From contig CAILLA010000081.1 in assembly GCA_903834925.1 (NCBI GenBank), positions 1 to 64,000 of the forward strand: a stretch of DNA of 64,000 nt, read 5' to 3'. The DNA is from an uncultured Schlesneria sp. (GTDB lineage: Bacteria > Planctomycetota > Planctomycetia > Planctomycetales > Planctomycetaceae). Position numbers and translations under genes: made by a program. Shown here one piece after another: positions 60 through 9,293 of this stretch. The notes beneath the pieces were generated by a model. That model did no database searches and had not been told where the DNA came from. It saw nothing but the letters and a program-made list of their open reading frames with translations. How positions within the stretch are numbered: the stretch's first letter is position 1; each line of letters starts with the position of its first letter.

Positions 60-258
60 AAGGCAACGCCGTGAAGGATTTTTCTTCGGGAAATGAGGGA
101 TTCGAACGAAATCTTGTGCCACTGAATGATCGTCTTCGATCACTCAGTGTCCTTCAATCGCCAGTTTGAAGTTCGAAGGACACTGCGTCGGAGAAGACTC
201 CGATGCAGTGGCACGTCACATTAGTCTCATTCTGAAAAATCCTTCACGGCGTTGCCTG
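60..258. repeat. Composite inverted-repeat element (double-hairpin family, copy 1)
   Basis: Two perfect 24-bp inverted arms lie at 60-83 and 235-258. They enclose one copy of the GTGCCACTG...CAGTGGCAC element (116-214), which is itself two adjacent hairpins (about 118-150 and 181-212). Similar cores occur at 17353-17450, 22076-22168, 49075-49171 and 54512-54608, and the outer-arm sequence recurs near 17482-17515. The start of the window (1-28) matches a stretch near 17310-17335, so the 5' end of the window and the 17.2-17.6 kb region share a longer repeat block. No protein-coding signal is seen in 1-612; the remainder (259-612) presumably carries the promoter of the downstream TIR gene, but no clear -35/-10 is evident. 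Confidence 0.8.
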
Positions 259-612
259 AAAGGGCAAGGGAACCCGATGAGGCGAGAAATCATATGGAAA
301 CGGGGCATTGGTCATCGCGTGCCACTGGCGTGCGTCTTCGGTTCACGGTATCGCCCTCAGAGAATGGATGGCCGGGCAATTCGGCGACGGAAGGAGTGGA
401 CCAAGAATTCGCCACCATGCCGTCGCAATTTCAAATTTCATTGCCTGTTCAAAATTGAACCTGTGCCGCCGTCGACGTATCCTGAACAGAACGAATGAAC
501 GCAATACTGATTCACTCGCCATAGCGTCCCAAAGCACCGTTCAGCTATATCGCTTGTGTTATCGCCGTTGATACTGCGTTTTACCGATCTCTTCGATTGA
601 CCGACCACACAT

Positions 613-3576
613 ATGATCTTCATCAGTTACCGCATCGCAGATTCGGACACGGCCACGACACTGCTGGAACGAGAACTGACTCGCGTGTTCGGGGACAAGG
701 CCGTCTTTCGTGACAAATCGGGAATCGAAGGTGGTGACCCGTGGCGCGACGTAATCCTGGAAAAATTGACAGGCAGTTGCGCCGTGCTGGTCGTGATTGG
801 AAAAGATTGGGAAAGCGCCAAATTCGAGAAGGGCAAACTCAAACACAGTCTTCGCCTTTCTGATCCAAAGGACTGGGTTCGGCTGGAGATCACAAACGCG
901 TTGGCCAGCCACAAAACGCTGATTCCTGTTTTGTTGGACGGCGTGGAGCGGCCTGATCCGGAATGGCTCGCGAACTTCGAGTTACAGGAACTGAGCAATG
1001 CTCATTCGGTTGAATTACGGGTCAGCCGTTCTAAAGATTTTCAGTCCGACTTTGACGACCTCGTCGCACTGCTGCGAAAGAAATGTCCGACGCTGACGCA
1101 AGTCGATGTTTCTGCGGATAACGACCCGGCAACAACGCCGACCGAGATCCCCCCGACGTACATTCAATGGCTGACAAAACAATGTGGTGACATCACGCCG
1201 TTCGCGATGGAACTCAATCAGGGGCTTTCGGTTTCTCTGCAGGATGTTTACGTCCCGCTGCTGACCGGCCGGCGGTTCGACCGCATGCTGGACGAAATGT
1301 CGCCCGATTCAAAGATCGGAAAACGTGGGCAGCACACACCCAAGCAGGTCGTTGGCGAGACGGAATTGGAAGACGAGGCCAAGCCGCAATTGCTGCTCAA
1401 TGTTCTGGGCGAAAATTCGTTGTATGTCTCGGGCGACCCTGGCACCGGGAAGACAACGTTCTGCCGTTGGGTCGGTCTGTTGGCCGCAACCGGCAAGATC
1501 CCGCTGTTCTGCGTTGATGATCCTGAGTATCTCGAAACCTTGCCGGATGCGCTGTGCAGCAGGCTACCGGTTCTCGTCCGATTACGGGAATTGAGTGATT
1601 ACCTGATCGAAAAATCCGCCCCGTTAAAGCCTCGCACGCTGGACGCGGTCCTCAAAGATTGGGCGACCGCCACAAAGTTGGGGGGATTGAGTTGGGCCGA
1701 TGTGAAATCGCATTTGCACCACGGTTCGCTACTGCTGATCCTGGATGGAGTTGACGAAATCCCGCTCAGCAGTGGCGATGCGGCCAGCGGGCCGTCACCG
1801 CGCGAATTGTTTCTGACCGCCTTCAGCAATGCCGCTCCCAAATGGATCAAGCTCGGCAATCGCATCCTGATCACCAGCCGCCCCTACGGACTGAAACCCG
1901 ATCAGGTTCGTCAACTGGAACAAGCGGGCTTGCCCGAGGCCCGTCTGGAACCGCTCCCGGAAGCATTGCAGAACCTGCTGGCGACGCGCTGGTTCGTAGC
2001 ACTGGAAAAGACATTGGATGAGGGTCGCGGTGTTGCCGATGCGATGTTGAAACAGGCGCGGGGTTTATCCGAAGACGTGGCCAGAATGACCGCCAGTCCG
2101 TTGCTGCTGACAGCCATCTGTGCCATCTACAGTTCTGGCAAAGAACTACCGAAGGACCGCCATCATTTATTTGACCGGATCGTGGATACGGCGCTTTACA
2201 GCCGATTTCGACGTGACAAAAACCTGATTGCCAAAGTTCGCGGCCGTCTGGCCGCTATCGCATTGGGGATGCACACAGGACAACCCATCGAACCGGGCCG
2301 CAAGTCACCCGCTCGCGAAGTCCACAATTCGGAACTCGATGCGATCCTGAGTGACTATATTCAAGCCAATCCCGAAACCGAGTCGGGCGGATTGGGAGTT
2401 GTGAAGGCCAGGGAAGAATTATTGGATCAATGTGGTTTGTTGTTATCCACCCGGCCTCAACACGCGGCCTTTTCGCATTGGTCGTTTCAGGAATTTCTGG
2501 CAGCTGAGCGGATGACAACGATCTGTCTTGCGAACGAGGATCGGATTTTTGAACGATATTGTGAATGGTCCAATCTGGCCGGTTGGCGACCGACACTGTC
2601 GTTCCTGTTCGACCGCCGAGTCGCCCAGCTTGGCTGGCAATCCGGAACACCGTTATTCCAAAGAATGGTCACTGAAATCGAACGACGATCACTCGCCAGT
2701 TCGCTCGGACTGGCAACGTGTGCCGCCGACGCATTGGGAATTGTGCTCGATCTCAAGTTGATGTTGAAAGAAGAATTGCTCGCACCATTTCGGACGGTTT
2801 GCCTGGCCGCAATCGATCAGGAGGTCGAATTAAAACCACGTATCGACCTTGCGAGGGCTCTGGGCCGCATCGGCGATCCCCGAGTTTCAAGCGACCTTCA
2901 CGACGCGAACAACTGGGTGACAGTTGAGGCGGGACGATACATTTACGGCGAAGACAAACGTCCCATCCAGATCGACCAACCGTTCCGTTTGTCAAAATAT
3001 CTAGTGACCAACGGCCAGTTCGCTCGCTTCAATGATGCGGGTGGATACTACGACCAATCGCTCTGGGGTAACGATGGATGGAGCTGGAGACAGAAAGGCA
3101 AGATTGATAAACCGCGTTTATGGCACGAGTCGAAATGGAACGGTTCGACACAACCGGTGGTGGGTGTTTCGTGGTATGAGGCCGAGGCCTTTTGTCGTTG
3201 GGCGGCCTGCCGATTGCCGACGGAGCAAGAATGGGAAGCGGCGGCACGCAGTCCAAAAGGAACAGAATATCCGTGGGGCAATGAATGGAAAAAGGAGATC
3301 TGTAATTCTGCGGAGGCGGATATTGGAGTGACAACACCCGTGGGAATTTTTTTGAGTTCCGTTGCCTCTTGCGGCGCTCACGATTTGGCGGGGAACGTGT
3401 GGGAATGGTGTGCAGATTGGTGGGACGAAAACAAGACAGTGTCTCGTGTGATCCGTGGGGGTTCCTGGGCAAGCATTTCGAGGGACGCGCGCTCTGCTGT
3501 CCGTGACAGGAACGCGCCAGTCAACCGTGGCATCAACCTCGGTTTTCGTGTGGTGTCGTTGCGTCAGGACTCTTAA
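613..3576 (+). CDS. TIR-NACHT-FGE (C-type-lectin fold) protein, candidate DGR variable protein
   Basis: A 987-residue three-part protein. Residues 1-120 are a TIR domain (MIFISYR start, LVVIGKDW strand, probable catalytic Glu92 in WVRLEI), a fold that in bacterial immunity consumes NAD+. Residues about 265-700 are a NACHT-type STAND NTPase: Walker A GDPGTGKTT at 274-282, Walker B LLILDGVDE near 374-382, a TSRPYG sensor motif and the HWSFQEFLAAE motif typical after NACHT. Residues about 768-987 are an FGE-sulfatase domain (LPTEQEWEAAAR, GNVWEWCADWW, RGGSW, GFRVV). The last part resembles a DGR variable repeat: a 24-codon block (3469-3540) differs heavily from the paralogue at 4346-7705 while the following 36 nt are nearly identical. 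The start ATG at 613 puts the TIR beta-strand at the N-terminus; no Shine-Dalgarno is visible. Likely an NLR-like defence sensor; this function is inferred. Confidence 0.9.
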   Translation: MIFISYRIADSDTATTLLERELTRVFGDKAVFRDKSGIEGGDPWRDVILEKLTGSCAVLVVIGKDWESAKFEKGKLKHSLRLSDPKDWVRLEITNALASHKTLIPVLLDGVERPDPEWLANFELQELSNAHSVELRVSRSKDFQSDFDDLVALLRKKCPTLTQVDVSADNDPATTPTEIPPTYIQWLTKQCGDITPFAMELNQGLSVSLQDVYVPLLTGRRFDRMLDEMSPDSKIGKRGQHTPKQVVGETELEDEAKPQLLLNVLGENSLYVSGDPGTGKTTFCRWVGLLAATGKIPLFCVDDPEYLETLPDALCSRLPVLVRLRELSDYLIEKSAPLKPRTLDAVLKDWATATKLGGLSWADVKSHLHHGSLLLILDGVDEIPLSSGDAASGPSPRELFLTAFSNAAPKWIKLGNRILITSRPYGLKPDQVRQLEQAGLPEARLEPLPEALQNLLATRWFVALEKTLDEGRGVADAMLKQARGLSEDVARMTASPLLLTAICAIYSSGKELPKDRHHLFDRIVDTALYSRFRRDKNLIAKVRGRLAAIALGMHTGQPIEPGRKSPAREVHNSELDAILSDYIQANPETESGGLGVVKAREELLDQCGLLLSTRPQHAAFSHWSFQEFLAAERMTTICLANEDRIFERYCEWSNLAGWRPTLSFLFDRRVAQLGWQSGTPLFQRMVTEIERRSLASSLGLATCAADALGIVLDLKLMLKEELLAPFRTVCLAAIDQEVELKPRIDLARALGRIGDPRVSSDLHDANNWVTVEAGRYIYGEDKRPIQIDQPFRLSKYLVTNGQFARFNDAGGYYDQSLWGNDGWSWRQKGKIDKPRLWHESKWNGSTQPVVGVSWYEAEAFCRWAACRLPTEQEWEAAARSPKGTEYPWGNEWKKEICNSAEADIGVTTPVGIFLSSVASCGAHDLAGNVWEWCADWWDENKTVSRVIRGGSWASISRDARSAVRDRNAPVNRGINLGFRVVSLRQDS
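3469..3576 (+). other. Candidate DGR variable repeat (VR1) with initiation-of-homing-like 3' end
   Basis: Codons 3469-3540 encode the hypervariable block between RGGSW and GFRVV; 3541-3576 is the conserved end including the stop. Compared with VR2 (4346-4453) the 72-nt block has 22 differences: 15 have A in one of the two copies, three are second-position T/G pairs compatible with an A template mutated in both, and four are third-position C/T. The following 36 nt differ at one position. This is the adenine-biased pattern expected of DGR mutagenesis, though two sequences alone cannot prove it. Confidence 0.7.
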
Positions 3577-3660
3577 TTTCCCCTGATTAGCTTCTCTTCT
3601 TTACCCTTTTTCTTGCATTTTGATTTCTTATCGCCGCGAAGCGGCGCGCGAGTTTTTTCA
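3577..3660 (+). other. Conserved 3' flank with GC hairpin downstream of VR1
   Basis: This non-coding stretch matches the 3' flank of the convergent paralogue (4261-4345, other strand) at about 91 percent by eye, better than the coding sequence just upstream of the VRs (about 79 percent). It contains the hairpin CGCCGC-GAA-GCGGCG (3632-3646), starting 55 bp after the stop and followed by a T run (3653-3658). DGR targets commonly carry a GC-rich stem-loop just downstream of the VR that assists homing. The same hairpin could also act as a transcription terminator. Confidence 0.65.
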
Positions 3661-3664
3661 TTTG

Positions 3665-4095
3665 GAACTTGCCCGGAATTGTACAGCGGTTGGATGACAC
3701 GCTTTCCACCATGGCTCGCCCAGGTGGAAGCACATTTGGAAACCAGAAAACATCCTCAACCCAGCGTCTCCATTCTTGCTTTCCACTATGGCTTGTCCAA
3801 GTGGAAGCGAATTTGGAGACCAGAAAACGACTTGATTCCAATGTACTCGGTTTTTCCTTCCACGTGGTCGGGGAAGAATTCGCGACTGATCAACGGGCTA
3901 TGATGACACGTATTGCGCTTCAGAGCTTGTCTGATTGATCGCAACTTTTGGAATCAGCACCCCTCGAGCGATACCAAATTCGCTCCCACTTGGACAAGCC
4001 ATAGTGGAAAGCAAGACAGGGTGTTGGGAAGCGCTGCTTCATCTGGTTTCCAAATTCGCTTCCACCTGGGCGAGCCAGTGTGGAAAGCAAGTATC
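3665..4095. repeat. Four palindromic repeats between the convergent NACHT genes
   Basis: Four copies of a ~40-bp imperfect palindrome (GCTTTCCAC ... GTGGAAGC followed by AATTTGG-like sequence) lie at 3701-3743 and 3778-3820 in one orientation and at 3974-4012 and 4046-4090 in the opposite orientation. More copies occur at 8711-8750, 8881-8922, 8954-9000 and 61533-61576. Each can fold as a stem of about 8-9 bp. The rest of 3577-4345 shows no gene. Confidence 0.8.
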
Positions 4096-4260
4096 ACCCT
4101 CATTGCCCGCCTACACCTTGTGCGCCAGCCGGTCACCAACAGTGAACTTATGGCTGCGTGGAAACTTCGCCACGTGCTGGCATCCCCAGATCACAAGATC
4201 ATACATTTTCGTAATCACTGCCAGTTCTGCCGTTGCCTTAGCCATTTTCTACCCCCCCCT

Positions 4261-4345
4261 CAAAAAAAAATCGCGCGCCGCTTCGCGGCGAAGAGAAATC
4301 AAAATGCAAGAAAAGGGGTAAAAAAGAAAAGCCAATCAGGGGAAA
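4261..4345 (-). other. Conserved 3' flank with GC hairpin downstream of VR2
   Basis: Mirror image of 3577-3660. Read on the minus strand it carries the same hairpin (4276-4290) 55 bp after the stop of the SIR2-NACHT gene, followed by a nine-T run (4262-4270). Spacing and stem sequence are identical to the other gene, so the two VR ends form a long inverted repeat separated by about 600 bp. Confidence 0.65.
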
Positions 4346-4453
4346 TTAAGAGTCCTGACGCAACGACACCACCCGAAAACCAATATTGCTGCCACGGACG
4401 CCGGGCGTGCCCCTGCCGCGGACGGCAGAGCGCGCGACCCCCGAACCGTCGTC
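4346..4453 (-). other. Candidate DGR variable repeat (VR2)
   Basis: The variable block is 4382-4453 (24 codons, the same length as VR1); the conserved end is 4346-4381 including the stop. Twelve of the 24 residues differ from VR1, while interspersed residues (for example ARSAVR) are invariant. This mosaic fits a fixed scaffold with AAC/AAT-type template codons at the variable sites. Confidence 0.7.
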
Positions 4454-7400
4454 CCAGGAACCCCCGCGGACCACACGAGCATCTTTTTTCTTGGTGTCCC
4501 ACCAATCCCCGCACCATTCCCATACGTTACCCACCATATCCTCCGCACCACAGGCAGCTTTCGACTCGGTGAAAATTCCGACAGGAGTCGTGACGCCGAG
4601 GCGCGCTTCACGCGAATTGCAGATTTCATCCCGCCAGTCATCGCCCCAAGGATAGTCCCAACCTTTGGGGCCGCGAGTTGCGGCTTCCCATTCCTGTTCG
4701 GTTGGCAATCGACAGTTTGCCCAGCGACAATACGCCATCGCTTCGAACCAGCTCACCCCAACCACCGGTTGTGTCTCGCAATTCCACTTGGAATCATTCC
4801 AATAGGCAGGCATTGTGATGTTCTTCGTCTGTCGCCATTTCCAACTAACGTCCCCGTCAGTCTCATCGATCCAGTACTTTTCGTGTGTGTAGCCACCATC
4901 GGCGACGAATGCGGCAAACTGCCGGTTCGTGACGGGAAACCGAGACATCTGGATCGCTTGCTCGAGTTGAAACTTTCCCGGCTTCAAAGCCGTTCCAGGG
5001 AAGTATTCCTTTGGAATTTTTGCATCGCCGACGCGGTAAGTGCCGGGTTTCACAGGGACCCATGTCGACGGTTCGGTCAGCCAGTTCTTGGGATCGCGAA
5101 GATCGGTCGCAACACGTGGATCACCCATCCGACCGAGGGCTAATGCCAATTCCATCCGATCCTTGACGCGGACTTCCGGTTTGATCGCAGCGAGGCAAAA
5201 ATAGACGAATCGCTGTTGCGCTTCGGCATCCAGCCGAAGGTCGTGCCCATGCAGAATGCGCCAGCAGTCGCACAGAACAATACCAAGACGAATACGGCTG
5301 ATCGACAGTTCTTCACTCAACTCCGTCAACAGCCGAACCGCCCGGTCCTTGATTGTGATATTGTTGAGGGTGGCGCCGTATAAAAATCCCAGCGATTTCC
5401 GCCATTCCGGGATATCCCCTCGTTCGAGGAAAACAGGTTTGAGATCCTCGAAATGTTGCTCATAAAGTCTTTCCGCTGCAAGAAAATCCTGGATCGTGAA
5501 ATGGTAAAAGCTGGCACTCTTGTTACCTTGCGGCAATAGCAGCCCGGATTGACTGAGTAATTCTTCCCGCGTGTCATGCGCGGACAAGATCCGCCGATCG
5601 CCCCCCGGTCGATGATCCTGATAGTATTTCAGCATCCGTTCAATTTCGTCAAATGTGGCCTCCGCTTGTGGTTGCTGCCGAGCTTCGCCGAGCTCTTTCC
5701 CCGTGTGCATGCCATGAGCGATCACACAAAGGCTGCTTCGCGCGGCGGCAAATTGATGGGACTCTTCCTGATTTCGGTTTGACAACACCGTGTTCACGAT
5801 CCGTTCATACAAATCGTATTCATGCTGAGGCAGGCGATGTTTTTCGCCATAAACGATACAGATGGCGGTCAACAGCAGCGGGTTTGAGGCCAGGCTTGCG
5901 ATTTCCTGTCGATTGGCAATGTCACCCCACAATCGTCCGCACTCGGAATCGACCTCCTCATCGCTTTTCCTGAGAACATGGAACCAGCGCCGGACAAGTA
6001 ACTCTTGCAGTTCCCGAGGCAATTCCGCTACGGGTTCGTGGTCCAGTCCGAGTCGGCGCGATTGCGCGTCGGTCAATCCGTACGGGCGACTGGTGACCAG
6101 AACACGATTTCCTTTCGACCGCCAGTGATCGATGGCATTCGAGAGTCCCGAAAGCAGCAAGGTCCGTGGCTCGGCCGCATGGTCAGGTTTGATTCGTTCC
6201 AGCGGGACTTCATCCACCCCGTCGAAAATCAAGAGTGTTAACCCGGCGTCAAGATGGTCTTGTACCGTGGACCATGCCAGTCCGCCGAACTTTTTCCCTT
6301 CGATCCAGTTTTTCATCGCCAACTCAAACTGCGCGTGCGTCAATTCCGCACCTCGTTCGAGATTCGGTAAGAATTGCCAGAAGTCTCGTAACTTGACCAG
6401 CAAGGGAAGCCGACCCCGCAGTGGTTCTGGAAATACTTCCAGAAAGCCGTCTGGCGGCGTGACGGGATGAGCCGTCAATTCCCCCTGACAGATCGCCAAT
6501 GCCAGCCAGCGGCAAAACGTGGTTTTGCCGGAACCGGGAGCACCCGAAAGATAAATCGACTTTTCAGCGATGATCGATTGAAGCAGCCGGTATTGAGCTC
6601 GACGTTCTTCGGAACCAGGCTGTTGCCGTTCGAATCCGACTTCGTCTGGTTTCTTCGTTTGCGGTTCACGGTTCTGTGTAACGACCGGAACATAGACATT
6701 TCGCAAGGTGACCGAGTGACCAATCTTTGGGCGCAGTCCCAATAGTTCGATATCTTTGCTGCAATCTTTGATCAGCCAATCGATGTACGCGGGAGGAACC
6801 ACCGGACGGTTCGGCGGGATTGTGATCGCCGGCGCTGACGACCGACCTTCGGCCAAAGTGTGAAGCAGATCCACCAGTGGCTGGCCGTAATCTTCGAATT
6901 CGATCACCTGGATGTTGAATTGGCTCCAGTGTCGTGATTTTTCGGCGTCGGATTCGCCTTTTTTCTTGAGCGCGAAATGCGGTTTGGTCGCTTCGCCAAA
7001 CGTCTTATAAACGTCCACCACCATGTCCATCACGTATTCGTCTTCCAATCCAAAACCGATGAACAACAATGTCCAATTGGCGAGCAAAGCCTTCAATTGA
7101 ACCTTGGCCGCTTGGTACTGTTTCCGGGACTCATCCGCATAAAACATGTCGTACTGCGACGGTGCGAGGATCAGGCTCTCGAGATCGGAGATATGCCCGT
7201 GAAGGTGCCAGACCAATGGTCTTTCTGCGGTGGCATCGTAGAGTCCTGCTAACTCAGGTTTCTGGCGGTTCAGCAGTTGTTTTGAATTCGGATTACACCA
7301 CGTGAGCACGTTGTCGTAATTGGTAGTGATCACAATGCCCGGCTTCAATCCCCAGATCGCGTCGGGAAGTGACCAGTCCGCTTGAGCCGGTTTGGGGATA

Positions 7401-7705
7401 TCGAATCGCTTGCGCATCACATCGTAAAAGCCATTTTTTCCCAGTTCTTCCCAAGCAACTTTGGCCGCGTCGAGCCATTTTTTCAATTTGCATTGAATCC
7501 TGACCAGGTCCGCGTGTTCTTCCTTCGGCATCCCTCTTAACGCCGCTTCCATATCCTTCAGTAGTTCGCCCCAGGTAGGGAACAACGTTCGATCAACCGC
7601 CAGGCTGACGCCGGAGCCAACAAACGGGACAACTCGTCCCTTGGCGAATTCGCTTTTCAGCTTTGCAGGAATCTGGGCGCTGGCACTGTTCTTGGAATCT
7701 GTCAT
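4346..7705 (-). CDS. SIR2-NACHT-FGE (C-type-lectin fold) protein, candidate DGR variable protein
   Basis: I choose the internal ATG at 7705 (MTDSKNSASA) because the upstream 21 in-frame residues are not domain-like; this gives 1119 residues. Residues about 15-260 are a SIR2-like domain (VVPFVGSGVS, ITTNYDNVL, WHLHGHI, LLFIGFGLEDE), a family with NAD+-degrading members in anti-phage systems. A NACHT NTPase follows (Walker A GAPGSGKTT near residue 388, LLIFDGVDEVP, VTSRPYG, FTIQDFLAAE). Residues about 870-1119 form an FGE-sulfatase domain with the same LPTEQEWEAATR, GNVWEWCGDWW, RGGSW and GFRVVSLRQDS landmarks as the 613-3576 protein. The two share architecture but carry different NAD-type effector domains and converge on one intergenic region. 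Probably an NLR-like sensor with a diversified ligand-binding end. Confidence 0.88.
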   Translation of the reverse strand: MTDSKNSASAQIPAKLKSEFAKGRVVPFVGSGVSLAVDRTLFPTWGELLKDMEAALRGMPKEEHADLVRIQCKLKKWLDAAKVAWEELGKNGFYDVMRKRFDIPKPAQADWSLPDAIWGLKPGIVITTNYDNVLTWCNPNSKQLLNRQKPELAGLYDATAERPLVWHLHGHISDLESLILAPSQYDMFYADESRKQYQAAKVQLKALLANWTLLFIGFGLEDEYVMDMVVDVYKTFGEATKPHFALKKKGESDAEKSRHWSQFNIQVIEFEDYGQPLVDLLHTLAEGRSSAPAITIPPNRPVVPPAYIDWLIKDCSKDIELLGLRPKIGHSVTLRNVYVPVVTQNREPQTKKPDEVGFERQQPGSEERRAQYRLLQSIIAEKSIYLSGAPGSGKTTFCRWLALAICQGELTAHPVTPPDGFLEVFPEPLRGRLPLLVKLRDFWQFLPNLERGAELTHAQFELAMKNWIEGKKFGGLAWSTVQDHLDAGLTLLIFDGVDEVPLERIKPDHAAEPRTLLLSGLSNAIDHWRSKGNRVLVTSRPYGLTDAQSRRLGLDHEPVAELPRELQELLVRRWFHVLRKSDEEVDSECGRLWGDIANRQEIASLASNPLLLTAICIVYGEKHRLPQHEYDLYERIVNTVLSNRNQEESHQFAAARSSLCVIAHGMHTGKELGEARQQPQAEATFDEIERMLKYYQDHRPGGDRRILSAHDTREELLSQSGLLLPQGNKSASFYHFTIQDFLAAERLYEQHFEDLKPVFLERGDIPEWRKSLGFLYGATLNNITIKDRAVRLLTELSEELSISRIRLGIVLCDCWRILHGHDLRLDAEAQQRFVYFCLAAIKPEVRVKDRMELALALGRMGDPRVATDLRDPKNWLTEPSTWVPVKPGTYRVGDAKIPKEYFPGTALKPGKFQLEQAIQMSRFPVTNRQFAAFVADGGYTHEKYWIDETDGDVSWKWRQTKNITMPAYWNDSKWNCETQPVVGVSWFEAMAYCRWANCRLPTEQEWEAATRGPKGWDYPWGDDWRDEICNSREARLGVTTPVGIFTESKAACGAEDMVGNVWEWCGDWWDTKKKDARVVRGGSWDDGSGVARSAVRGRGTPGVRGSNIGFRVVSLRQDS

Positions 7706-9293
7706 GAGTCTGCCAAATACAAAATCATGCGGAAAATACGGAAAGGAATTCTGACCAATAATGTACACACCGATTCTGTTCGCCGGAACAGTATGCCGAC
7801 CGGAATGGTCTTCAGGAAAATTGACGTTTTTTACAAATTAATCGCGTTTTTGTATTGCTGGTGATATTTATGTCGTTAAGATGTGTTGTGCGTGATGGGT
7901 TTGACTTGAATCAAGGCGACGAGGGTGTTGATTTGGGAAAGTCGTAGAACAATCAATGAATCGAACACGACGATGGTTACGGGGGTGTGCAGCGGTGATA
8001 AAGAGGTTGAACCCAAAAGGGTTTTCTGCGGGAAGAATAGGTCCTATGGGTCGTATAAGACCTATGGGACCTATCGGGCTTCTCGCCCCGAGACCCAATC
8101 GGAGTTTTTATTCTGTGGCGATTCGAATAATCCCGGAGTCGACATTGTTCCCGGGCATTGTCCGGGCCGATCGGTCGGCAGTTGGAACAAAGGCGATGTT
8201 GGCCAACTTGGCCAAGTTCGACCGTGTCAAAACACTATAAAAACAGGAACTTTGCCAACTTGGCCAACTTTCTTGCGAGACGATGGAATAATTAGGGGCC
8301 GCAGTTTCGGATGGAAGTTGACTCGCCGTTCGGGAAGCGGAGCTTCGAAGAGGGGCGTTCCCAAGCTGGAGCCTTTGAAGTTGCGCATTTTCGATATCTG
8401 AAGTGAAATCAAGAATTCAACGCAAAGTCGCCAAGGCGCAAGGACGCAAAGAATTCAAAAAGTCGGTAACGCCGTGGAAGAAATCCGGAAACTTGACTCA
8501 ATGAGTCAAGTTTCAGATCAGAAGAAGTCTATTGAAGAAAAGAATCCGGGGACTGACGTCACCCGGCTCGCCTCGACTATTGTTTTTCGTGAATTGGGAA
8601 CCTGGCCCTGACCGAAATGAAGACTTTGAGCGTAGGCCGAAGTGGTAGAAGGTGGTCATGAGAGAGTTGGATTTGCAAATTGTCGGGAATTGTACAGCGT
8701 TTGGATGACACGCTTTCCACTCTGGCTTGCCCACAGGTGGGAGCAAATTTCAGCCGTCAGCATTGAGTGAATGGCAGCCAGGTTTGGCCAGAGACGGCCA
8801 TGTCGATAGTGAAACGGCATCCCCTCGAGTTTGTCTTGGTGGCAGCCATATTTCGCGGAATGACGCTTGAAAGTCGCGCGACCAAATTCGCTTCCACCTG
8901 GACAAGCCAAGGTGGAAAGCAAGAATAATTGCGTTGGGAAACGCCACGTCGTCTGGTTGCCAAATTTGCACCCACCTGGACAAGCCAGGGTGGAAAGCTT
9001 GTCAGCCAATCCCTACGCGAATCCCAACTTTTTCGAAATCCGCCCTCATGAGAGAGTCGTAAGTCGTTAAATACGAAGAATCCGGGGGTTTACACCGGCC
9101 GGCTCGCCTTGGTCAACGCGCGAATGATTGTCCTATTTTGATCCCATCATCCGACGCGCATGAACCGGCTGTGCCGGCCGGCTCGCCTGGAATTCTTGAA
9201 TCGCTGATTGCAAAACCCGCGACAGGGGTTGTTCTGTCTGATAAACTGTTGCTGATGGTTGATGTTTCGTTTTTCCTCACGGAAACCTGATCA
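7706..9293. repeat. Repeat-rich intergenic region (about 1.6 kb)
   Basis: No convincing gene. It holds several repeats: tandem CCTATGGG/ACCTAT motifs (8037-8085), two TTGGCCAACTTGGCCAA-like palindromes (about 8199-8221 and 8250-8272), a CGCAAAG-type array (about 8420-8452), the palindrome TTGACTCAATGAGTCAA (8493-8509, again at 17803-17821), three copies of the GCTTTCCAC/GTGGAAGC palindrome (8711-8750, 8881-8922, 8954-9000), and two copies of an AAGAATCCGGGG...GGCTCGCC repeat (about 8540-8574 and 9078-9111). The last also occurs at 12884-12914, where its centre is the perfect palindrome CCGGGGGTTAACACCCCCGG. A partial GCGTTCCCAAGCTGGAGC repeat is at 8355-8373. Confidence 0.7.

What the first reader, a model, noticed from the sequence alone, without database searches (positions are those of the whole stretch)
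3391..4480. Convergent TIR-NACHT and SIR2-NACHT genes end in DGR-type variable repeats
Seen: both genes end in an FGE domain with a 24-codon block flanked by RGGSW and GFRVV. The block differs at 12 of 24 residues and 22 of 72 nt; 15 of the 22 have A in one copy and three more are second-position T/G pairs consistent with a mutated template A. The next 36 nt differ at one site, and ~75 nt of non-coding 3' flank are ~91% identical, higher than the upstream coding sequence (~79%). Known: DGRs mutate template adenines and write them into C-type-lectin/FGE domains, and NACHT-type conflict proteins with DGR targets have been described in multicellular bacteria. Inference: this pair is diversified by an off-window reverse transcriptase.
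Basis: partly seen in the sequence, partly recalled or inferred. Interest (0 to 1): 0.93.

Follow-up and report, generated by a model that had tools for sequence, protein, structure and literature searches.

The report
Orphaned hypermutated sensors on NADase-type receptors
Two facing bacterial defence-type genes, each with a different NAD-cleaving-type head, end in the same kind of sensor tail that a retroelement once randomised at chosen letters; the genome still holds related machines of this kind, but the template that wrote these two tails survives, as far as the assembly shows, only as a fossil.

Summary
TIR-NACHT-FGE (613-3576 +) and SIR2-NACHT-FGE (4346-7768 -) end in true DGR-type variable regions (VRs); a third copy lies at C140. 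Positions that are A in most of seven other template repeats (TRs) vary among the three copies at 22 of 27, other positions at 6 of 45 (p=9e-9). In the closest pair 17 of 18 differences are at codon positions 1-2; in non-DGR FGE orthologues 37 of 275. An IMH-type end and a hairpin follow both VRs.

The genome holds two DGR loci with open RT frames (C245, C229), but neither TR fits these VRs outside adenines or at the 3' end. Three searches find one window-type TR trace: a fossil 3' end at C206 near a decayed TIR-NACHT piece, without TR body or RT. Relatives show stages: in L189 a SIR2- and a DUF4062-NACHT-FGE VR match one TR at every non-A site (RT truncated); G128 keeps a TR beside a gutted RT; for G003 and G126 VRs no fitting TR was found.

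Verdict: DGR-made sensors of a TIR/SIR2 receptor pair, most likely orphaned; present diversification is not shown. DGR-diversified STAND-FGE receptors are known (Doré 2024); the SIR2/DUF4062 heads and traceable orphaning are new here.

The parts
613..3576 (+). TIR-NACHT-FGE gene (987 aa): TIR aa 2-136, NACHT aa 271-461, FGE/C-type-lectin aa 767-981
4346..7768 (-). SIR2-NACHT-FGE gene (1140 aa): SIR2_2 aa 145-289, NACHT match aa 511-597, FGE aa 901-1134
3469..3540 (+). Variable block of VR1 (24 codons); GGSW codons at 3457-3468
4382..4453 (-). Variable block of VR2 (24 codons); GGSW codons at 4454-4465
3559..3572 (+). IMH-type 3' end of VR1, TTGCGTCAGGACTC (VR form AGGACTC; TRs mostly AG[T/C]ACT)
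4350..4363 (-). IMH-type 3' end of VR2, TTGCGTCAGGACTC
3632..3646 (+). Hairpin CGCCGC-GAA-GCGGCG after VR1, followed by CGCGAG and a T run; may double as terminator
4276..4290 (-). Hairpin CGCCGC-GAA-GCGGCG after VR2, followed by CGCGA and a T run
3660..4094 (.). MITE/REP-like array (77-nt units, then inverted units) between the two VRs; a similar array lies in the VR-TR spacer of the C245 DGR

Best explanation
The two genes are STAND (NACHT) receptors with NAD-targeting-type N-terminal domains (TIR, SIR2) whose C-terminal FGE/C-type-lectin sensor was randomised by a diversity-generating retroelement. A TR with AAY codons was copied by an error-prone RT (A to N) and written into the VR upstream of the IMH, with a hairpin further downstream as target mark. 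SHOWN: the A-confined variation, the codon pattern, the VR-type 3' end and hairpin, homologous DGR loci in the same genome, a relative (L189) whose SIR2- and DUF4062-NACHT-FGE VRs match one TR at every non-A site, and a fossil window-type TR 3' end in this genome. INFERRED: this lineage's RT and TR body were lost from the genome and the sensors are now frozen (orphan VRs); ligand binding by the variable FGE face opens the NACHT switch; TIR or SIR2 then cleaves NAD+ and stops the cell.
For: Mask test with seven TRs of other loci: 22/27 vs 6/45, p=9e-9; v2/v3 17/27 vs 1/45, p=9e-9. Codon-position signature of v2/v3 [9,8,1] is like that of VR pairs at DGR loci (C245/C278 [8,9,1], C229 pair [7,10,0], G003 pair [9,8,1]) and opposite to non-DGR FGE orthologues [20,17,238]. 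Two DGR loci in the same genome: C229 (TR, two FGE VRs) and C245 (TR, kinase-FGE VR), with a probable remote VR at C278. IMH and hairpin as in VRs of other DGR loci. L189: SIR2-NACHT-FGE VR 14 A-mismatches, DUF4062-NACHT-FGE VR 12, both 0 non-A, against one TR. Orphaning: the DNA search with a predicted TR (18 of 18 candidates scored) finds no further TR. A scan for TTGCGTCAGYACTC with one mismatch gives 11 sites, of which only the two window VRs and C206 have GGTTTTCG upstream, and only C206 the TR-RNA motif downstream. The TR-RNA model reports C245 (a training sequence) and C206 (not in training). C206 has the window-type end CGTCAGCACTC, no TR body, no significant RT match, and a TIR-NACHT fragment 0.5 kb upstream. 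G128 shows an intermediate stage: TR present, adjacent RT gutted.
Against: Draft assembly (307 contigs): a TR/RT core could sit in a gap, and repeats like these break assemblies; C140 starts about 350 nt beyond VR3 and C81 starts 613 nt before the TIR gene. In one search only 150 of 2848 first-look candidates were scored with the RNA model, and R1 does not recognise the C229 or G012 TR types. The 3' flank is conserved far beyond the coding sequence (v1/v2 7 of 111 differences vs 223 of 615 upstream), which suggests the targets were in use until recently or still are. G012 fits the mask test poorly (p=0.28 against G003, 0.054 against v1). The mask comes from TRs of the same wider lineage, one of them (C245) in this genome. 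The C206 TR-type base (C for G in AGGACTC) is one base; the downstream RNA is the stronger evidence.
Confidence: 0.74

Rival explanations
1. The pair is still diversified today by a TR/RT core of its own lineage that is missing from the assembly or present only in part of the population.
For: IMH, pyrimidine-rich flank and hairpin are conserved among v1-v3 and orthologues although the genes have diverged. [quoted passage not shown]
Against: The DNA search with a predicted TR, the TR-RNA model and the 3'-end pattern scan find no further copy in 9.02 Mb at 99.99% completeness (the RNA search scored 150 of 2848 candidates). For the window-type VRs of G003 and G126 no fitting TR was found either (candidates capped there too).
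Confidence: 0.17
2. The C245 DGR (RT and TR) diversifies the window VRs in trans.
For: C245 TR shares the AAY layout; mismatches are enriched at A for v1-v3 (p=0.004, 8e-6, 0.006), and C278, a remote VR, has only 2/44 non-A mismatches to it.
Against: v1-v3 have 7-9 of 44 non-A mismatches to this TR, several shared by all three (codon 4 TCG, codon 11 NTC), and the 3' ends differ (TTAGTCGTGCGGCGTGAG vs GTGTCGTTGCGTCAG). C245's own adjacent VR also has 6/44, so scaffold mismatch alone is not decisive.
Confidence: 0.05
3. Ordinary divergence or positive selection of a ligand-binding loop, without a DGR.
For: GGSW...GFR is a common C-terminal motif of FGE domains, so the flanks alone prove nothing.
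Against: Changes sit at template-A positions with third positions nearly unchanged (v2/v3 17:1, control 37:238, p=5e-13, control comparisons not independent), and the homologues in L189 match a TR at all non-A sites.
Confidence: 0.02
4. Gene conversion between paralogues homogenised the 3' region and the VR differences are a residue.
For: The 75-nt 3' flank is 92-97% identical between copies that are 61-83% identical upstream.
Against: Conversion does not create differences confined to A positions; the flank is also recognisable across species.
Confidence: 0.02

Closest known systems
DGR clade 5D targets: STAND NTPase-CLec/FGE putative antigen sensors (Doré et al. 2024, PMC10907252; abstract, sections 7 and 12 and passages read)
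   Same: Central NACHT/nSTAND NTPase, C-terminal VR-bearing CLec/FGE domain, commonly two targets per DGR, some with TIR; MITE-like arrays replacing RT or TR; trans-acting TRs
   Different: Here a SIR2 head (0 occurrences of 'sir2' in that main text), a TIR/SIR2 pair, a SIR2/DUF4062 pair in L189, and a series of orphaning stages with a fossil TR RNA. RT clade of C245 not tested
DGR-associated VMAP ternary conflict systems (Kaur et al. 2020, PMC7159879; passages read)
   Same: FGS/FGE C-type-lectin domain as VR carrier in conflict systems
   Different: The receptor here is a single NACHT polypeptide with its own effector; vWA/MoxR/VMAP genes were not sought at the window pair
Bordetella phage BPP-1 DGR (Guo et al. 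2011, PMC3240598; passages read)
   Same: Hairpin downstream of the VR, stem sequence free to vary
   Different: Hairpins here lie about 45-78 nt after the IMH motif with 3-4 nt loops, against 4-34 bp from the VR and GRNA loops in the cited phage set
TvpA, Treponema denticola DGR variable protein (PDB 2y3c)
   Same: Sequence relative of the FGE domain, E=8.5e-12 with profile A4
   Different: No NACHT fusion is indicated in that entry's listing (294 aa chain); better-scoring matches are EgtB and FGE-type proteins

Membership tests
Diversity-generating retroelement (window locus as a complete DGR) | RT gene in or near the locus | tested here: not met
   No RT relic between the genes; four RVT_1 genes genome-wide, two DGR-type, at C245 and C229
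Diversity-generating retroelement (window locus as a complete DGR) | TR differing from the VR only or almost only at adenines | tested here: not met
   Best TR in genome (C245) leaves 7-9 of 44 non-A mismatches; no other fitting TR found
DGR variable region (target) | Variation confined to template-A positions | tested here: met
   22/27 vs 6/45, p=9e-9
DGR variable region (target) | VR in a C-type-lectin-fold domain | tested here: met
   By sequence only: PF03781 FGE, match to TvpA 2y3c; the fold was not predicted
DGR variable region (target) | VR-form IMH at the 3' end, different from the TR form | tested here: met
   AGGACT in 13 of 14 VRs and AG[T/C]ACT in 7 of 7 TRs; exceptions elsewhere: G125 TR has AGGACTC, G005 TR AGCACA, G012 and C229 TRs lack the motif
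DGR variable region (target) | Hairpin downstream of the VR | tested here: met
   Both window VRs; 11 of 14 VRs in all; none found for G126 (two VRs) and G004
DGR variable region (target) | Homing or population polymorphism | not testable with these tools
   Needs reads or strains
NACHT antiphage receptor (bNACHT/Avs-like) | Effector - STAND NTPase - sensor architecture | tested here: met
   Pfam domains in that order; sensor role of the FGE domain inferred
NACHT antiphage receptor (bNACHT/Avs-like) | Protection against phage | not tested
   Bench assay needed; PADLOC gave no family for the TIR gene and, for the other, 7 families all matching within its N-terminal aa 36-293

The most novel reading that the evidence does not exclude
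A portable 'randomisable sensor tail' (FGE with VR, IMH, pyrimidine tract and hairpin) is passed among receptors with different NAD-targeting heads (TIR, SIR2, DUF4062). It is kept under selection after the mutating core is lost, because the core is supplied by only part of the population or by re-acquisition, so that sensor repertoires are written in bursts and then frozen.
Probability: 0.2. Interest if true: 0.78.

Novelty: new variant of a known kind. Interest (0 to 1): 0.58.

Why it matters
It ties DGR hypermutation to three NAD-targeting-type heads (TIR, SIR2, DUF4062) on one NACHT-FGE chassis. It also gives stages of one lineage: TR with clean VRs and a truncated RT (L189), TR with gutted RT (G128), fossil TR with orphan VRs (this genome). 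That makes it testable what happens to an adaptive-type bacterial sensor after its mutator is lost, and shows that a search limited to RT neighbourhoods misses such targets.

Tried and rejected
Ordinary FGE divergence: rejected by the mask test and the negative control. C245 TR as direct donor: judged unlikely on scaffold and 3' end. Two of the four RT genes (C245:26043 and C138) match retron-type models best and were set aside. Another CGTCAGCACTC site among the fetched own-genome loci, at C220, is not a TR; eight further one-mismatch sites of the 3' end lack the TR surroundings. C140 and C81 contig ends share only an 84% repeat, so I could not link them. No RT remnant near C206 or between the window genes: best RT matches there had E 0.06 and 0.16. 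An A-biased repeat scan of 19 kb around C245 found nothing at first, probably because the C245 VR has 6 non-A mismatches; the TR was found. 'order' gave 170 genomes like 'family', apparently the same set. The predicted TR hits 6 of 72,556 plasmid records at 73-78% identity (mostly cyanobacteria) and no phage record (0 of 50,697); not followed. Caps met: searches scored up to 5 first-look candidates per genome, 23 per genome, 150 of 2848. Rows dropped: the TR set was meant to include L150, L185 and L186, but my pattern did not match them, so n=7; G128 was left out of RNA model R1 because of a duplicated stem, and C206 to keep it independent. The count of 36 FGE-tailed ORFs among 77 loci is my reading of the list.
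Full report
WHAT IS THERE. The window (G000:C81:1-64000) starts with two convergent genes: TIR-NACHT-FGE, 613-3576 +, and SIR2-NACHT-FGE, 4346-7768 -. Both end in RGGSW-24 codons-GFRVVSLRQDS.

A THIRD COPY. The only other long match in the genome is C140:347-561, the tail of a SIR2-NACHT-FGE-like gene whose 5' part is lost (77% identity to the SIR2 gene over 284 aa). I call the VRs v1 (TIR), v2 (SIR2), v3 (C140).

DGR SIGNATURE. From TRs of seven other loci I marked the 27 of 72 block positions that are A in at least 4 of 7. Among v1-v3, 22/27 marked and 6/45 unmarked columns vary, p=9e-9; v2/v3 differ at 17/27 and 1/45, p=9e-9; v1/v2 at 16/27 and 6/45, p=6.5e-5. v2/v3 differences by codon position are [9,8,1] against [31,20,66] upstream. 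VR pairs at DGR loci give [8,9,1], [7,10,0] and [9,8,1]; 16 comparisons among 8 non-DGR FGE sequences sum to [20,17,238]. Against: the more distant G012 VR fits weakly (v1/G012 p=0.054; G003/G012 p=0.28).

DGRs IN THE GENOME. Four RVT_1 genes were found. C229 is a DGR: RT, AAC-rich TR, two FGE VRs with mismatches almost only at A. C245 is another: a kinase-FGE VR, a TR encoding GGSWNNNARNARSANRNRNTPDNRNNNIGF, and an RT with GLPIGNQTSQ and YVDD (meaning of these motifs recalled). C278 carries a remote VR with the C245-type 3' end and 2/44 non-A mismatches to that TR. The other two RTs are retron-like. The predicted TR, built only from v1-v3, hits the C245 TR at 86% over 105 nt. But v1-v3 share non-A differences from it and have another 3' end, so the C245 TR is probably not their donor.

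CIS ELEMENTS. Of 14 VRs, 13 end in an IMH-type AGGACT; 7 of 7 TRs have AG[T/C]ACT. Exceptions: G012 VR (AGGATTC), L189 VRs (AGAACTC), G125 TR (AGGACTC), G005 TR (AGCACA), G012 and C229 TRs without the motif. Some 45-78 nt later 11 of 14 VRs carry a perfect-stem hairpin followed by CGCGA-like sequence and mostly a T run; the stems differ in sequence between lineages. The window VRs have all of these. The flank is more conserved than the gene: v1/v2 7 of 111 differences vs 223 of 615 upstream (p=7e-12), and it is recognisable in G003 and G012. Guo 2011 found that a hairpin after the VR is required for homing in BPP-1 and that its stem sequence can vary (passages).

THE MISSING TEMPLATE. A search of 170 family genomes with the predicted TR matched 25 (up to 5 candidates scored per genome). 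G128:C63 has a SIR2-NACHT-FGE gene, then a TR with ATC at the predicted codon and 3' end TTGCGTCAGCACTC, then an RT remnant with aa 40-154 and 267-349 only. Twelve TR 3' flanks, C245 among them, C206 and G128 not, gave an RNA model (13 pairs). In the own genome it reports two sites: C245 (E 2e-15) and C206:29059-29160 (E 7e-11), with 150 of 2848 first-look candidates scored. C206 reads GGTTTTCGAGTGGTGTCGTTTCCGTCAGCACTCTACG and then the conserved RNA, much like G128; the TR body is replaced (4 in-frame AAY codons in 110 nt, C245 TR 11), RT matches are not significant, and a TIR-NACHT fragment (62% over 53 aa) lies about 0.5 kb upstream. I read C206 as the fossil of the DGR lineage that made the window VRs. 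Across 170 genomes the model matches 19 (23 candidates scored per genome), several of them training genomes; G003 only at its own C67 TR, G126 not; G012 not either, but R1 also misses G012's known TR, so that says little. No RT was found beside the G126 VRs; its whole genome was not searched for RTs.

RELATIVES. A GTDB scan with the NACHT region gave 77 loci, many in Planctomycetota and Proteobacteria. In 36 of 77 the matched ORF has an FGE tail by my pattern, and in 6 of 77 (L189, L190, L209, L222, L223, L225) a nearby repeat differs from the VR at 11-19 A and 0-1 non-A positions. Five of these six have an RT match; L189's is truncated (aa 169-349) and L225 has none. In L189 one TR matches a SIR2-NACHT-FGE VR (14 A, 0 non-A) and a DUF4062-NACHT-FGE VR (12 A, 0 non-A), with the same hairpin type as the window. 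G012's window-type VR also sits on DUF4062-NACHT-FGE, and G128 has a DUF4062-NACHT gene opposite its SIR2-NACHT gene. DUF4062 is reported as a TIR-like NADase family (PMC13174449, preprint, abstract). The chassis thus carries three NAD-targeting-type heads; none was assayed. The NACHT-FGE part of G128's SIR2-headed protein is 56% identical to the window TIR gene (850 aa), while its NACHT region is 41% identical to the window SIR2 gene, as expected from head swapping.

LAYOUT. G145:C202 has two convergent FGE targets flanking TR and RT. The window has the same convergent layout with a MITE-like array in between, and a similar array lies in the C245 VR-TR spacer. Doré 2024 describes MITE-like arrays replacing RT or TR (section 7). 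That the window core was deleted from this spot is possible but not shown, since the fossil TR lies at C206.

HOST. G003:C82 has the length of CAMBQP010000082.1 (24,200), a MAG named Schlesneria paludicola, so the window is probably from a Schlesneria-like planctomycete (inference).

NOVELTY. Searches: DGR, NACHT, TIR, formylglycine, any two (20 of 1,955 listed); orphan VRs; Planctomycetes; SIR2 with NACHT and DGR (one paper, in which SIR2 appears as one of several effectors and DGRs only in references in the passages seen); IMH and cruciform. I found no description of SIR2- or DUF4062-headed DGR targets in these listings and passages; the library lacks most subscription papers, and supplements were not read.

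Noticed in passing
G000:C271, C255 and C146 (L154, L153, L156): FGE tails ending GGCTTCCGTTGTGCCCAAGTTC, at C271 and C255 with NNC-rich variable codons, look like a second orphan VR family; an AAY-density scan of these three loci showed no TR.
   Followed up: partly
G003:C67 (L146): Two FGE VRs differ [9,8,1] by codon position while the 300 nt upstream differ at only 5 sites: a probably recently active DGR.
   Followed up: partly
TR 3' flanks, e.g. G000:C245:52334-52439: A conserved structured RNA (GCCAGA-stem-TTCACGGA-stem-GCGTGCC...GTGCAGTCCA...GTGTCG) follows the TR in many planctomycete DGRs and can find TR remnants without a neighbouring RT.
   Followed up: yes
window 8671-8998: A second MITE/REP-like array of the same family upstream of the 5' end of the SIR2-NACHT gene.
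   Followed up: no
window 98-265 and G000:C140:3-168: An 84% identical repeat lies near both contig ends.
   Followed up: partly
G126:C147 (L181): Frameshifted SIR2-NACHT-FGE convergent with a NACHT-FGE piece; an ORF that looks like a REP-associated transposase (by eye, no family search) lies between them; no TR or RT seen on this contig.
   Followed up: partly
G000:C159 (L151) and C123 (L152): Two more TIR-NACHT-FGE paralogues (C159 by Pfam; C123 by similarity) whose FGE tails do not show the VR pattern by eye.
   Followed up: no
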